Source: an uncultured Lachnospiraceae bacterium (lineage in GTDB: Bacteria > Bacillota > Clostridia > Lachnospirales > Lachnospiraceae). Taken from it: DNA of 43,329 nucleotides. The stretch spans positions 1-43,329 of the forward strand of contig CANREE010000015.1 of assembly GCA_947629545.1 (NCBI GenBank), in the 5' to 3' direction. A program made the position numbers and the translations under genes. The notes under the pieces are model-generated. The model was given only the letters and a program-made list of their open reading frames with translations, did not search any database and was not told the DNA's origin. This document shows positions 36,657-42,906 of this stretch, piece after piece; the stretch's first letter is position 1, and each line of letters begins with the position of its first letter.

Positions 36657-38057
36657 TCAGTCATACATTTCATTCAATGGAACCAGCCTCACCCCGGTTT
36701 CTCCGGCCCGTTTCTTAAGCAGCTCCGTGAAGCCGCTTTTTGAAAACAGATAATAATAGTTTTTCGTGAATGCTCCCATGGCTTTCGCGTAATCCTCAAG
36801 CAGATTCAGCTCCTCCTCGGAAACAAGCCTGTTTTTGAACTTGCAGGAACCAACGATCCCGCAGCCCCCGTCCGCTGCCGTCACTACTACATCGATCTGG
36901 GCCTGCCTATGCGTCTGCGGATGCCCGCCCCACCATTGCCCCACCGCGCCGACCGCGAACGGCAGCCGCTCGTCGTAATACAGAATATAATCCCGGCACA
37001 TCCGTTCAAAAGTAAGTCCCATGTAATCCGAAAGATATTCTCCAACTGCCGCATCATAGGTCGTCCGGATCCGTCCTGAAACGATCGCGGACATATTACG
37101 CGGAATAAATGTATACCAGAATCGGAAGAACTGGTCATCCAGCTGATAGATGGGCCTCTTCGTCTGAAGATTCGTCACCGGAGTCTCTCTTCGGACGATC
37201 CCCAGAGTGATCAGATTGGCAATATATTTTGTGCAGAGACCGGTCTCCATGTTTGTCTCTGCCGCGATCTCCGACAATTTTGATTTACCGTCCGCAATGG
37301 CCGTAATCACGGAATTGTAGACTGACGGTTCCCGCAGCTCCTGCTTCAGCAGGTTGGACGGCTCCTCAAAAAGCATCGCGCTCCGATCGAACATCTGCTC
37401 CAAAATGTTCTCCCGCACAGTTCGGGTCTGCGAAAACTGCTCCAGATACAGGGGCACACCACCGGTCACTCCATACATAATCGCCTTTTCCTCATAAGAA
37501 TATTCTGGAAACCATTCCCCCGTCTCCCGATAGTCAAACGGCAGTATCTTAAACTGAGCAGTCCGGCGCCCATAAAGCGGGCTCTGATATCCCAACACCT
37601 GATTCTCCATAAAACTCATGGAAGAACCGCACAGGATCAGAAAAAGCTGCGTCGCCTTAAACTGGTGATCCAGAAAATTCTGCAGAAGCGATGAGATCCC
37701 CCGCTCTGCCTGAGCCAGATACGGATACTCATCGATCACCAGGACAAGCCGCTCCGACCGCGCCATCTGCGCGACCCGCAAAAACGCGTCGCGAAAGCTC
37801 TGAAATGAAAACCGGCCGCCGTCCTCCGAGAGTTCGCCCGCGTCAGCCGCCCTGACCGCCTCTGACAGTCCTTCCAGATTCTGTCTTGCACTGTTCTCCT
37901 GCGCGGCAAAAAAAATGGTTCGCTTATCCTTACAGAACTCGCTGATCAGCGTCGTCTTGCCTACCCTCCGGCGGCCATAGATAACTGCGGCCTCCAGCCG
38001 GCCGCTCTGATACATCTGATTCAATCTCTTTAGTTCGCGCTGTCTGCCGATGAACAT
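36657..38057 (-). CDS. AAA+ ATPase with DUF234-like C-terminus
   Basis: 466 aa; MFIGRQRELKRLNQMY, VIYGRRRVGKTTLISEF (Walker A), LVLVIDEYPYLA (Walker B), C-terminal KNRLVSEEELNLLEDYAKAMG. Confidence 0.87.
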   Translation of the reverse strand: MFIGRQRELKRLNQMYQSGRLEAAVIYGRRRVGKTTLISEFCKDKRTIFFAAQENSARQNLEGLSEAVRAADAGELSEDGGRFSFQSFRDAFLRVAQMARSERLVLVIDEYPYLAQAERGISSLLQNFLDHQFKATQLFLILCGSSMSFMENQVLGYQSPLYGRRTAQFKILPFDYRETGEWFPEYSYEEKAIMYGVTGGVPLYLEQFSQTRTVRENILEQMFDRSAMLFEEPSNLLKQELREPSVYNSVITAIADGKSKLSEIAAETNMETGLCTKYIANLITLGIVRRETPVTNLQTKRPIYQLDDQFFRFWYTFIPRNMSAIVSGRIRTTYDAAVGEYLSDYMGLTFERMCRDYILYYDERLPFAVGAVGQWWGGHPQTHRQAQIDVVVTAADGGCGIVGSCKFKNRLVSEEELNLLEDYAKAMGAFTKNYYYLFSKSGFTELLKKRAGETGVRLVPLNEMYD

Positions 38058-38283
38058 AGAATTCCTCCGATTATTGTCTTTGCCTGATCTGTATAATAGT
38101 AAATCACGATATAGTATATTATAATTCAGTATATTAAGTCTGTCAATACTCCAACAAAATAGTGATGATCCAGTTTGACCAAATCAAAGCTCTATCAAAT
38201 AGAAATCACCTTGCCTGCTCGAATATTTTGGAGTACAATAGAATACAGAGATCCGAAACCGATTCCGCAGAAAGGAGCACAGC

Positions 38284-39036
38284 ATGACCGGCAGTCATTC
38301 TCAGAAGAACACGTCCCCAGCCTCACTGCTGGACATTCTGCAGGAACAAAAAGCTGACAGATGTCCGGGCGGTATCTACCATAAGACGCAGATTGATCTG
38401 ACTTACAATTCCAATCACATCGAAGGCAGCCGTCTGACTCATGAGCAGACCAGATATATTTTTGAAACCAATACCATCGGCATGACGGAGGAGGCGCTGA
38501 ACGTAGACGATGTGATCGAGACGGTAAATCATTTCCGCTGCATCGACATGATCATCGACCATGCCAACGCTCCCCTGACCGAAAAACTGATCAAGGAGCT
38601 CCATCTGACTTTAAAAAGCGGTACCAGCGATTCCGGAAAGGACTGGTTTGCCGTCGGCGATTATAAAAAACTGCCTAACGAGGTCGGCGGTATGGATACT
38701 GCGCTTCCGGAAGAAACAGCCGGCCGGATGAAAGCACTTTTGAAAGAATACAACTCCGGACAGGAAAAGACCCTGGAGGATCTTCTGGACTTCCATGTGA
38801 AATTTGAACGGATCCACCCGTTTCAAGACGGCAACGGCCGCGTGGGCAGACTGATCCTGTTCAAAGAGTGCCTGAAATACCATATCGTTCCGTTTATCAT
38901 TGACGACAGCCTGAAGCTGTTCTATTACCGCGGTCTGCGGGAATGGGACCGGGAAAAAGGTTACCTGACGGACACTTGCCTGACAGCTCAGGACAGATAT
39001 AAGGCGTATATGGATTATTTCCGGATCGCTTATTAG
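38284..39036 (+). CDS. Fic-domain AMPylase-family protein
   Basis: 250 aa; IHPFQDGNGRVGRLILFKECLK (Fic motif), N-terminal SNHIEGS resembling the (S/T)xxxE(G/N) inhibitory motif; RBS AAAGGAG. Confidence 0.92.
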   Translation: MTGSHSQKNTSPASLLDILQEQKADRCPGGIYHKTQIDLTYNSNHIEGSRLTHEQTRYIFETNTIGMTEEALNVDDVIETVNHFRCIDMIIDHANAPLTEKLIKELHLTLKSGTSDSGKDWFAVGDYKKLPNEVGGMDTALPEETAGRMKALLKEYNSGQEKTLEDLLDFHVKFERIHPFQDGNGRVGRLILFKECLKYHIVPFIIDDSLKLFYYRGLREWDREKGYLTDTCLTAQDRYKAYMDYFRIAY

Positions 39037-39141
39037 AGCACGAACTCTTATTGGGACGGTATTCGTGTTAATTCCTAATGCTTATCATGTTAGGTAATTC
39101 GAAAGCTATACTATTTACAAAAAACAAGGGCAGGCATAATT

Positions 39142-40182
39142 ATGAGTGAACAACAACTACTGTCAGAAAAACTTGCAACTGAACTGGAAAAAGTAAAACA
39201 AGATTGTCCTGAGTTCTCTTATGCTTTGATTGGGCAAACTGTCAAAAGCTCCAAAAAGAATGCATATAAGTTAATGCTCAACGGGAAACGAATCGGAGAG
39301 GTATGGCCGCGCGGAAATTATGGGCATCTATATACAAATATTCTCACAGAAGAAGAAAAAAGCAAAGTAATCAAAGTCTCAAGCGCAAGTGAATACATAC
39401 CTGGTCCGGGAAACGATACAGATTATTACAATTTTCATGAAAAGTTTATTCTAAAATGGAACCGTGAATTTAAATCTCTTAGTTCGGTAAGTAACGAAGT
39501 GAAGGATTTAATAAGGAAGAGCAGAGGGCATTCTTCTCTTCCTATTGGCAGCCCTATATCAAATCCCACATCAAAAAACACACCTTTATCCCCCAAAAAA
39601 GTACGGCTCCTGCAGAATGTGATTTTGAAAAGCAGAGAGAATACTTTGGCTTATTTAATTGCAATATGTGACAGGATGGACTTAGATAAAGCTCTGGCTA
39701 TTCCATATGAAAAGCACATGGATAGATATTCCCAGTTGAAAAACATGGGACGTATTGCTTCCATCACATTCTATCCTGAATATCAATATGATGACTTTAT
39801 AGAAAAGGTCATACACATCACAAACAGTAACGATGGGATCGAAAAAGATTCATTGAAAGATGGTGATTTTAAGAGATTTTGTGCAAATGCCGCAAATTTG
39901 GCAGACCACATACACAATAACGCTGATATATTACCCCCTTGTGTATTCTTAATTAATGATATGGACAACGGTAATATCTGTGAGATATTTGGAGAAGTAA
40001 TGAATTTACTCCCAGATATAGAAAAACAAAGTAAAGAAGATGACAAGGATGTAATATTACCCTACTCTGGCGAACTATTCGAAATACCTAAAAATGTGCA
40101 TATTGTAGGAATCATGAATTCTACAAACAAGCTGGATTATTGGACACTTGAAACGATAAAGCAAAAGTTTCAGTTTGTCTAA
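39142..40182 (+). CDS. McrB-like AAA+ domain protein with degenerate Walker motifs
   Basis: 346 aa; GRIASITFYPEYQYDDFIEKVI, GDFKRFCANAANLA, CVFLINDMDNGNICEIFGEVMNLLPDIEK, VILPYSGELFEIPKNVHIVGIMNST align with McrB-type blocks, but no GxxGxGK[ST] is present. Confidence 0.72.
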   Translation: MSEQQLLSEKLATELEKVKQDCPEFSYALIGQTVKSSKKNAYKLMLNGKRIGEVWPRGNYGHLYTNILTEEEKSKVIKVSSASEYIPGPGNDTDYYNFHEKFILKWNREFKSLSSVSNEVKDLIRKSRGHSSLPIGSPISNPTSKNTPLSPKKVRLLQNVILKSRENTLAYLIAICDRMDLDKALAIPYEKHMDRYSQLKNMGRIASITFYPEYQYDDFIEKVIHITNSNDGIEKDSLKDGDFKRFCANAANLADHIHNNADILPPCVFLINDMDNGNICEIFGEVMNLLPDIEKQSKEDDKDVILPYSGELFEIPKNVHIVGIMNSTNKLDYWTLETIKQKFQFV

Positions 40183-40242
40183 ATAACCTGCCGCTACATT
40201 TTTGTAGTCACAGATAAAACTATTGTTAGAGGGGTGCCGAAA

Positions 40243-42753
40243 ATGACAGAACAAGATAAACTATATTTTGAGAAATTGGCTCAGGATAGAAAAGAAAGTG
40301 CTGCAATGCTGGATAAACCTTCTATGAGGGGAGTGAAAAAAAGTGTCGTAGAAAAGTATTCAGATCAGGCACATTTTATCTATGAACTGATTCAGAATGC
40401 CGACGATGCAGGCGCAACCGAAGCCCATTTTGAGTTATATAAAAAGGAATTAATATTTAGACATAATGGCACAAGACATTTTTTTGTATCAAATCCTGAA
40501 ACCGAAGAGCAAGACACCAAACGAGGATGTCTTGGAGATATCAATGCCATTACTTCTATTGCCAATTCCAATAAGACAGACACCGCTGCGACTATTGGCA
40601 AATTCGGTGTGGGGTTTAAAGCGGTATTTCAATATACTATGACGCCGCATATATATGATTCTAATGCTGCTTTCAAAATAGAACATTTTATCGTTCCTGT
40701 TTTGCTGGAGAAAGACTATAAATCACGTAAAGAGGAAGAAACTATTTTTGTGTTTCCCTTTGACCATCCGGAAAATGATGCGGAAAAGGCATATCAGGAC
40801 ATTCAGGAGAAACTGCAGAATCTCGTGTTTCCTATTCTATTTCTAAAGAATCTGCATCTCATTACATATTGGACAATTTCCAAAAGCGGAAAATATACAA
40901 AAGAGTTTTTGCAGAATGAAGTATTTGACAATACCACAGAAGCTGATCTGATTAAAGTAAAAAATGGTATTGGTGAGGAAGCTAATCGATTGTGGGTTTT
41001 CTCGCGGACCATTGCACACAATTTAAAGTATTCTGTAGGATTCTTTTTGGACAAAAAGGGAGAACTCACACCGGTTGATTACAGTGCATTCTGTTTCTTC
41101 CCTACAAAAACAGCAACCGGATTGAAATTCATTATTGATGCTCCATTTCTGTTGACAGACAGCCGGGAAGGGATTAAAGCAGCAGAACCGCACAATATCA
41201 AAATGGTGGAAATGCTAGCAGAATTAGCCGCAGACAGTCTTTCTTATTTGAAAGACCTAGGAGAAAAAAACGGAATACGATTACTTAATGATAATATAAG
41301 TGGGATTATACCTACCAATCCTAACATATTCAGTTCCGAAAATAACCGGGATACTATCTCTTTTTTGCCTATCTATAACAAGATACGCGACAAAATGAAA
41401 AGTGGTTTATTGCCGACAAGAGCGGACTATACGAAAGGTGATTTCGCATATTGGTCTGATACGTTGGAAATCAACTCCTTGTTTTCTGATGCCCAGTTAA
41501 CGAACCTTTTAGGGAAAGCCTTGGACTATAGATACCATTTCAGGGTTTTCCTGGATTATTATATCGAATGTGAAGAATCTGGAAAAACGCAGAATACAGT
41601 ACCTCATGATTATCCAGTGAAATTATTGACTACGCAATACAGGAGTATTCCTGAGATTGGAGAGATATTCAGTAAACTAACCTACGACGGAATACTTGAA
41701 CACTATCGCCAAAAGGCTGAGCGAAGAGAGCTTCACATTGAAGAGTATCTGAAATATGACAGCCTGAACATTATTAAGTTTCCTGTCAGCAAATACGAAA
41801 GTATATACCGGGCTAAGCGATTAAAAACAAGCAGTAATTATCAAGCTTATTCCGCTTTATTTGTATTTGAATTTGTACAATTCTTAGCAGAGAAACTTGC
41901 ACAGAAAAATCCAGACGAGAAATTCCGCATAGGAATTATCGCGCCTTATAACGCCCAGGCTGGATTGATTGAGCGTTTGCTTGATGATGCAAAAAAAATG
42001 GGGATTTTTTCCCACTTAATTGAAATCGGCTGCAGTACAATCCATGGGTTCCAAGGTGATGAATGTGACATTATCATCACAGTATTTAATCCTCCGCCAT
42101 ACATTTCCGATAATCCGGAAATGTTCCTGAATCATCAAAATATTATTAATGTGGCTATTAGCAGGGCAAGAGATTATCTGTTCGTCCTGATGCCAGATGA
42201 TAAAACAGACCGTGTTAATAGACTATTTTTGATAAAATCACTGGAACACCTAATCAAACGAAGCGGAGCATATGTTGAAACTGATTCACATACATTGGAG
42301 CAAGCCATGATGGGTACACCTAATTTTTTAGAGGATAATTCTTTTTCAACAGGACATCAATTAGTAAATGTATATGGACAACCAGAAAAACGATATGAGA
42401 TACGAAGTGAAGACAGCGCCGTGGATATACAGGTTCATCGTGAAAATATAGCTTTAGCAAAACCCGAAACGGAAACGATCAAACCTGTTAAAAATGAGTC
42501 TCCATCTGAAAATAAGGAAGAACCGGCAAAGATTAATACTAATGAAATCCATCCAAATAAGGGACAAAATATGATCCCACCATCAGGAGGATTTCAGAGG
42601 ATCAAGCCTGGAGCGTATGTTAGGCATCGTCTATTCGGTGTCGGGAGAATTGAAAGTATTGAAGGACGGCGTATAGTTGTATCATTTCCCGGTGGGAAAA
42701 AAGTATTTGAATTTCCTACTGCATTTAAGATGGGATTCTTGAAATTGTGTTAA
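40243..42753 (+). CDS. Sacsin/HSP90-type GHKL ATPase fused to a C-terminal SF1 (Upf1/Dna2-like) helicase half
   Basis: N-terminal FIYELIQNADDAGATEAHF, LIFRHNGTRHF, TIGKFGVGFKAVFQYT; C-terminal LLTTQYRSIPEIGEIFS, IGIIAPYNAQAGLIERLL, STIHGFQGDECDIIITVFN, INVAISRARDYLFVLMPDD; no helicase Walker A/B. Confidence 0.85.
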   Translation: MTEQDKLYFEKLAQDRKESAAMLDKPSMRGVKKSVVEKYSDQAHFIYELIQNADDAGATEAHFELYKKELIFRHNGTRHFFVSNPETEEQDTKRGCLGDINAITSIANSNKTDTAATIGKFGVGFKAVFQYTMTPHIYDSNAAFKIEHFIVPVLLEKDYKSRKEEETIFVFPFDHPENDAEKAYQDIQEKLQNLVFPILFLKNLHLITYWTISKSGKYTKEFLQNEVFDNTTEADLIKVKNGIGEEANRLWVFSRTIAHNLKYSVGFFLDKKGELTPVDYSAFCFFPTKTATGLKFIIDAPFLLTDSREGIKAAEPHNIKMVEMLAELAADSLSYLKDLGEKNGIRLLNDNISGIIPTNPNIFSSENNRDTISFLPIYNKIRDKMKSGLLPTRADYTKGDFAYWSDTLEINSLFSDAQLTNLLGKALDYRYHFRVFLDYYIECEESGKTQNTVPHDYPVKLLTTQYRSIPEIGEIFSKLTYDGILEHYRQKAERRELHIEEYLKYDSLNIIKFPVSKYESIYRAKRLKTSSNYQAYSALFVFEFVQFLAEKLAQKNPDEKFRIGIIAPYNAQAGLIERLLDDAKKMGIFSHLIEIGCSTIHGFQGDECDIIITVFNPPPYISDNPEMFLNHQNIINVAISRARDYLFVLMPDDKTDRVNRLFLIKSLEHLIKRSGAYVETDSHTLEQAMMGTPNFLEDNSFSTGHQLVNVYGQPEKRYEIRSEDSAVDIQVHRENIALAKPETETIKPVKNESPSENKEEPAKINTNEIHPNKGQNMIPPSGGFQRIKPGAYVRHRLFGVGRIESIEGRRIVVSFPGGKKVFEFPTAFKMGFLKLC

Positions 42754-42799
42754 ACAAAAGTTATAGCACGGGTTAGACTTCTTAATGATTTATACCGCA

Positions 42800-42836
42800 A
42801 TGCAGGTCAGTCCGCTTTACGGGAACTGACCTGCAT
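42800..42836 (+). terminator. Hairpin terminator after the GHKL-helicase gene
   Basis: ATGCAGGTCAGT...ACTGACCTGCAT followed by CATTTTCTGT. Confidence 0.6.
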
Positions 42837-42849
42837 CATTTTCTGTACG

Positions 42850-42880
42850 CTCTTGACTTCAACATCTACGAAGTCAAGAG
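42850..42880. other. Perfect 11 bp inverted repeat near the trpA 3' end
   Basis: CTCTTGACTTC-aacatctac-GAAGTCAAGAG. Confidence 0.75.
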
Positions 42881-42906
42881 TCCTGTCAAATCGGCCCGGC
42901 CATTTC

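What the first reader, a model, noticed from the sequence alone, without database searches (positions are those of the whole stretch)
39142..42753. Two-gene candidate defence-like module: degenerate McrB plus GHKL-ATPase/half-helicase
Two adjacent same-strand intact genes (60 bp gap) combine a McrB-family protein lacking ATPase motifs with a sacsin/HSP90-type ATPase joined to the second half of an SF1 helicase. McrB-type NTPases, GHKL ATPases and Upf1-like helicases all recur in anti-phage systems, but I do not recognise this pairing as a described system. The segment also looks visibly more AT-rich than its flanks and sits beside a Fic gene, an AAA ATPase and the trp operon, as expected for an insertion. 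The defence role is inference.
Basis: partly seen in the sequence, partly recalled or inferred. Interest (0 to 1): 0.78.

Follow-up and report, generated by a model that had tools for sequence, protein, structure and literature searches.

The report
Pseudo-McrB plus sacsin-helicase mobile gene pair
Two foreign-looking genes that travel together between related gut bacteria pair a permanently 'switched-off' relative of a virus-restriction motor with a chaperone-helicase fusion often found in anti-virus gene neighbourhoods, but in this particular genome the second gene has lost its middle half and is probably broken.

Summary
In detail: two intact same-strand ORFs (346 aa; 839 aa; 51-bp gap) form an AT-rich block (36-38% GC; GC3 0.34 against 0.62-0.89 in neighbours).

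Gene 1 is a genuine pseudo-McrB. It lines up with McrB GTPases but has lost the P-loop, Walker B, NTAD and arginine motifs and the C-terminal lid. Two congeners share these losses, and it is under purifying selection (dN/dS 0.18), so it is not simply decaying.

Gene 2's 'half-helicase' is not a real architecture. A congener carries a 95-96% identical full-length 1720-aa protein (sacsin-type GHKL ATPase, middle region, complete UPF1-like SF1 helicase). The window copy has two in-frame internal deletions (152 and 729 codons; junction microhomology 2-3 bp) that remove the helicase Walker A and B motifs. It is probably a recent loss-of-function allele.

Both genes occur in exactly the same 3 of 26 congeners, with three unrelated flanks, and an empty site exists: a mobile two-gene cassette. 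The sacsin-helicase family is widespread and often beside defence genes (PDC-S68-like neighbour in 18 of 69 loci), but the pseudo-McrB partner was found only in this genus. A defence role remains inference.

The parts
39142..40182 (+). pseudo-McrB: orphan N-terminal domain (about 1-130), fast-evolving linker (131-160), McrB-type AAA+ domain without Walker A, Walker B, NTAD or RRRF motifs and without the C-terminal lid (161-346)
39637..39663 (+). approximate position of the lost P-loop (NVILKSRE..NT in place of NxILYGPPGTGKTYNT)
   Evidence: alignment; coordinates approximate
39940..39960 (+). approximate position of the lost Walker B (LINDMDN in place of IIDEINR)
   Evidence: alignment; coordinates approximate
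40234..42753 (+). sacsin-type GHKL ATPase fused to the second RecA half of a UPF1-like SF1 helicase: internally deleted derivative of a ~1720-aa gene
40339..40659 (+). sacsin/GHKL nucleotide-binding domain with N-box (ELIQNADDA) and GKFGVGFK motif intact (SACS match, residues 36-142)
41516..41518 (+). junction of deletion 1 (456 bp, 152 codons; 3-bp microhomology AAG)
   Evidence: L046 7406 joined to 7860
41516..41599 (+). 84-bp remnant (ALDYRYHFRVFLDYYIECEESGKTQN) left between the two deletions, 98.8% identical to L046 7860-7943
41595..41599 (+). junction of deletion 2 (2187 bp, 729 codons, removes helicase Walker A and B; about 2-bp strict microhomology)
   Evidence: L046 7943 joined to 10126
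41608..42189 (+). helicase C-terminal RecA2 half (AAA_12, residues 459-652)
39096..42751 (+). segment shared with the congener cassette; its left end is about 23-46 bp before gene 1 and its right end is the gene 2 stop codon
38165..42900 (.). stretch absent at the corresponding trpA-flanking site of congener G309 (Fic gene plus cassette); replaced there by about 128 bp

Best explanation
The segment is a horizontally acquired two-gene cassette inserted at a variable site beside trpA. In its intact form (congener G311, locus L046) it encodes a pseudo-McrB and a full-length sacsin-type GHKL ATPase / UPF1-like SF1 helicase. Shown: co-inheritance, mobility, purifying selection on the pseudo-McrB, full-length ancestry of gene 2, and two deletions removing the helicase's nucleotide-binding half in the window copy. 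Inferred: in the intact cassette the GHKL head dimerises on ATP and gates a helicase acting on foreign nucleic acid; the pseudo-McrB cannot hydrolyse GTP and serves as an assembly-competent adaptor or sensor whose N-terminal domain recognises a ligand. The window's own cassette most likely no longer works as a helicase-driven system.
For: Congener L046 has a pseudo-McrB of the same 346 aa plus a 1720-aa gene 2; window DNA maps to it in three collinear blocks at 90.6, 98.8 and 96.5%. Deletions are exact multiples of three with 2-3 bp junction homology, too short for a k-mer assembly collapse. 64 of 85 homologous ORFs in the window and 80 loci are at least 1450 aa, 63 of those 64 with Walker A; the shorter ones are mostly contig-edge or broken ORFs, and none shows the window's structure. 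Pseudo-McrB dN/dS is 0.18 against L046: N-domain 0.07, AAA region 0.17, linker 0.84; Fisher p 9e-21. Both genes occur in G000, G311 and G315 only of 26 congeners. Shared homology starts just before gene 1 and stops at the gene 2 stop codon, with unrelated flanks. Empty site in G309. Sacsin-helicase neighbours include PDC-S68-like (18 of 69 loci), DISARM DrmD, MmeI-type IIG and TOTE primase genes. AF2 of gene 2 folds the GHKL part and RecA2 confidently with a low-confidence junction.
Against: No functional data. The genome is an 83%-complete draft assembly and reads were not available, so the deletions cannot be checked directly. Both deletions being in frame, with only 4 window-specific departures from family consensus in the rest of gene 2, leaves room for a functional short form or simply a very recent event. 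Three genomes are few; dS varies from 0.08 to 1.16 along the cassette, so recombination distorts dN/dS. PDC-S68 is itself only a candidate defence family. In L047 the pseudo-McrB has a frameshift.
Confidence: 0.62

Rival explanations
1. A functional minimal variant: the window's 839-aa protein is a selected short form in which the GHKL head regulates a nucleic-acid-binding RecA2 domain without helicase activity, mirroring the catalytically dead McrB partner.
For: Both deletions are in frame (1 in 9 by chance), the ORF is open for 839 codons, GHKL motifs are intact, dN/dS over the remaining regions is 0.04-0.27, and both halves are predicted to fold.
Against: None of the other homologues fetched shows this structure; low dN/dS is equally expected if the deletion is recent; the junction is predicted with low confidence.
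Confidence: 0.15
2. Assembly artefact: the strain carries the full-length gene and the draft assembly joined three pieces wrongly.
For: The source is a fragmented assembly (162 contigs, 83% complete) and reads cannot be inspected.
Against: Junction homology of only 2-3 bp and preserved reading frame at both joins are not how k-mer graph errors look; no second copy of the gene was found in the assembly.
Confidence: 0.08
3. Two independently decaying genes: a dead McrB and a dead helicase left over from unrelated systems.
For: Gene 2 is deleted here, and gene 1 is frameshifted in L047.
Against: Gene 1 shows the same motif losses in three genomes with strong purifying selection and an intact ORF in two; the pair moves as a unit.
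Confidence: 0.08
4. Not defence: the pseudo-McrB is a co-opted cellular factor like PcdA, and the pair does housekeeping or stress work.
For: PcdA of S. aureus shows the same kinds of loss (degraded Walker A, lost Walker B glutamate, lost C-terminal helical bundle) and acts in cell division (PMC10602043).
Against: PcdA is described from coccoid Firmicutes with EVE domains; this gene is sporadic (3 of 26 genomes), mobile, AT-rich, with no EVE hit, and its partner family is found beside defence genes.
Confidence: 0.07

Closest known systems
PcdA (Staphylococcus aureus degenerate McrB-family protein; PMC10602043)
   Same: McrB-family AAA+ core with degraded Walker A, altered Walker B, lost arginine finger and lost C-terminal helical bundle; no McrC partner next to it
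   Different: Here the P-loop is deleted outright, both Walker B acidic residues and the NTAD motif are gone, the N-terminal domain has no EVE hit, and it sits in a mobile pair with a sacsin-helicase
McrB of type IV McrBC restriction systems
   Same: AAA+ core collinear with McrB; best structural matches are T. gammatolerans and E. coli McrB
   Different: All catalytic motifs lost, no McrC partner; the same genome separately has a canonical McrBC
Tiamat (TmtA)
   Same: TmtA profiles match the GHKL/sacsin N-terminal part of gene 2 (up to 3e-38)
   Different: The match does not run through the TmtA profiles; the helicase half is outside it
Mokosh (MkoA/MkoC)
   Same: Profiles match the SF1 helicase part (3.5e-39 for the full-length L046 protein)
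   Different: The matches lie in the helicase part only; the N-terminus is a GHKL ATPase and no PLD-type partner was seen next to it
CoCoNuT types II/III (PMC11090510)
   Same: They too combine an McrB-type protein with a UPF1-like SF1 helicase
   Different: CoCoNuTs have McrB GTPases with a recognisable signature motif, coiled coils and a CnuC/McrC homologue; here McrB is dead, the helicase is fused to a GHKL ATPase, and no McrC/CnuC is adjacent
VcSduA (Shedu with a GHKL N-terminal domain; PMC12137116)
   Same: A GHKL ATPase head proposed to gate a C-terminal nucleic-acid enzyme in phage defence
   Different: The gated enzyme there is a PD-(D/E)xK nuclease, not a helicase
PDC-S68-like RecD helicase/nuclease plus sacsin-helicase pairs
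   Same: Same sacsin-helicase family; the partner occupies the same upstream position
   Different: The partner is an active-looking RecD-type protein, not a pseudo-McrB

Membership tests
McrB GTPase (McrBC) | McrB-type AAA+ fold | tested here: met
   (AAA core pLDDT moderate; Foldseek 1.8e-08 to McrB)
McrB GTPase (McrBC) | Walker A, Walker B, MNxxD signature and arginine motif | tested here: not met
   all four lost in the window protein; same losses in L046 and L047
McrB GTPase (McrBC) | McrC partner | tested here: not met
   no McrC next to the cassette
PcdA | degenerate AAA+ without the C-terminal helical bundle | tested here: met
   against the description
PcdA | two N-terminal EVE domains | tested here: inconclusive
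   no Pfam hit, but the N-domain model is low confidence
Tiamat | end-to-end TmtA profile match | tested here: not met
   full-length L046 protein matches only N-terminal portions of the TmtA profiles
Mokosh | MkoA/MkoC match outside the helicase, PLD-type partner | tested here: not met
CoCoNuT | McrB GTPase with UPF1-like CnuH, CnuC and coiled-coil components | tested here: not met
sacsin-type GHKL/UPF1-like helicase fusion family | ~1600-1750-aa protein with GHKL N-terminus and a complete SF1 helicase | tested here: not met
   met by L046; not met by the window copy, which is a deleted derivative
anti-phage defence system | protection against phage | not testable with these tools
   only neighbourhood and family evidence

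The most novel reading that the evidence does not exclude
An undescribed two-gene immune cassette in which a catalytically dead McrB acts as the ligand-sensing or inhibitory subunit of a GHKL-gated UPF1-like helicase, replacing the PDC-S68-like helicase/nuclease that occupies the same upstream slot in related systems.
Probability: 0.25. Interest if true: 0.68.

Novelty: new variant of a known kind. Interest (0 to 1): 0.48.

Why it matters
A McrB-family protein that has lost every catalytic motif yet stays under purifying selection and travels with one partner would be a second example, alongside PcdA, of restriction-derived AAA+ proteins working without normal catalysis. The survey also shows that a widespread GHKL-UPF1 helicase fusion family recurrently neighbours a PDC-S68-like gene, a testable candidate defence pair. 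For the window itself the practical message is a caution: the eye-catching half-helicase is a deletion scar.

Tried and rejected
Half-helicase as a conserved architecture: rejected. Pseudo-McrB as simple decay: rejected. Assembly artefact: unlikely from the junctions but not excluded. Relatives of the N-terminal domain: the only hits outside the genus were weak (E 2e-4 or worse); the four loci read were PheS, treated as spurious; no viral contigs relative of the pseudo-McrB, no listed plasmid match covering the N-domain. Pseudo-McrB outside the genus: none in samples of 295 order and 391 class genomes; six of the seven best class-level hits were read and have intact motifs. Canonical McrB beside sacsin-helicases in the 80 loci: none adjacent. 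Literature for 'TOTE conflict system', Tiamat/TmtA with HATPase, PDC-S68 and McrB pseudo-ATPase: nothing on this pair in the held library. An earlier count gave 13 upstream same-strand PDC-S68-like neighbours; the recount is 12.

Full report
Observation. Both ORFs exist as described: 39142-40182 (346 aa) and 40234-42753 (839 aa, GTG start), separated by 51 bp. GC drops to 36-38% over the pair; GC3 is 0.34 for both genes but 0.62 for the neighbouring Fic gene and 0.64 for the ATPase gene, so the foreign-looking block is the pair itself.

Gene 1. No Pfam family matches; NCBIfam gives McrB at 5e-10 and the only PDB sequence hits are McrB. Aligned with McrB homologues from other genomes of the order, it is collinear but lacks the P-loop (NVILKSRE--NT), Walker B (NDMDN for DEINR), the MNTAD signature (MNSTN) and the RRRF arginine motif (KQKF), and ends before the C-terminal lid. 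The same losses are seen in congeners L046 and L047, apart from single substitutions, so they predate this genome. dN/dS against L046 is 0.18 overall, 0.07 in the N-terminal domain and 0.17 in the AAA part, with a near-neutral linker (Fisher p 9e-21). dS varies strongly along the gene, so recombination is likely and the ratios are approximate. The L047 copy has a 10-bp deletion that shifts the frame. AF2 supports the AAA core moderately (mean pLDDT 55.7 overall; best Foldseek hits McrB), while the N-terminal domain stays unresolved.

Gene 2. It begins with a sacsin/GHKL ATPase and ends with the second RecA half of a UPF1-like helicase. Homologues in other genomes are mostly single ORFs of about 1555-1924 aa with a complete helicase. 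The congener G311 (L046) has a 1720-aa version; window DNA matches it in three collinear blocks separated by gaps corresponding to deletions of 456 and 2187 bp, both in frame, with about 3 and 2 bp of junction homology. The missing part contains the helicase Walker A and B motifs. So the 'half-helicase' is a derived deletion allele. In-frame joins and few other changes are compatible with either a very recent event or a functional short form; I favour the former.

The pair as a unit. In 26 genomes of the genus, gene 1 and gene 2 both occur in the same three (G000, G311, G315) and nowhere else. Shared homology begins just before gene 1 and ends at the gene 2 stop codon; the flanks differ: Fic and trpA in the window, a serine recombinase in L046, other ORFs in L047. 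Congener G309 has the same left flank (98%) joined within about 128 bp to trpA, an empty site for Fic plus cassette. This supports mobility of the pair, but rests on three genomes.

Wider family. 347 relatives of gene 2 were detected and 80 loci read. The pseudo-McrB was found only in the three congeners. A PDC-S68-like RecD helicase gene lies adjacent in 18 of 69 evaluable loci, 12 of them upstream on the same strand. A handful of other large neighbours chosen for closeness were also defence-type genes; that choice was not random, so it is indicative only.

Mechanism. Most likely, in intact cassettes, ATP-driven closure of the GHKL head controls a UPF1-like helicase, with the pseudo-McrB as non-catalytic sensor or adaptor. 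The fold assignments and selection are shown; the interaction, substrate and phage defence are inferred. A GHKL head gating a C-terminal nuclease has been proposed for the defence protein VcSduA (PMC12137116). PcdA is the published precedent for a degenerate McrB with a retained function (PMC10602043), though there weak NTPase activity was measured.

Noticed in passing
L049, L050, L055, L056, L060, L063, L067, L068, L070, L077, L100, L105 (upstream, same strand); L053, L064, L086, L120, L061, L095 (other arrangements): A PDC-S68-like RecD helicase with a nuclease-like C-terminus is adjacent to sacsin-helicase genes in 18 of 69 evaluable loci: a candidate two-gene defence association.
   Followed up: partly
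L049:15078-18071: A TOTE-type primase/SF2 helicase/PLD protein lies directly downstream of the sacsin-helicase (Pfam AEP-TOTE 5e-75).
   Followed up: no
G000:C70 (L174:1287-4386): The window's genome also carries a canonical McrBC pair with intact motifs.
   Followed up: partly
window 36657-42900 and congener trpA loci L134-L136, L144: The site downstream of trpA differs between congeners (various genes present or absent), suggesting an insertion hotspot.
   Followed up: partly
window 38284-39036: Fic gene strongly matching PADLOC candidate PDC-S04 (1.8e-112); absent from the G309 empty site together with the cassette.
   Followed up: no
window 36657-38057: ATPase_2/DUF234 protein matching PADLOC candidate PDC-S27 (3.8e-62).
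   Followed up: no
L035/L050 (G112): Sacsin-helicase gene broken into three ORFs, so decay of this gene happens elsewhere too.
   Followed up: no
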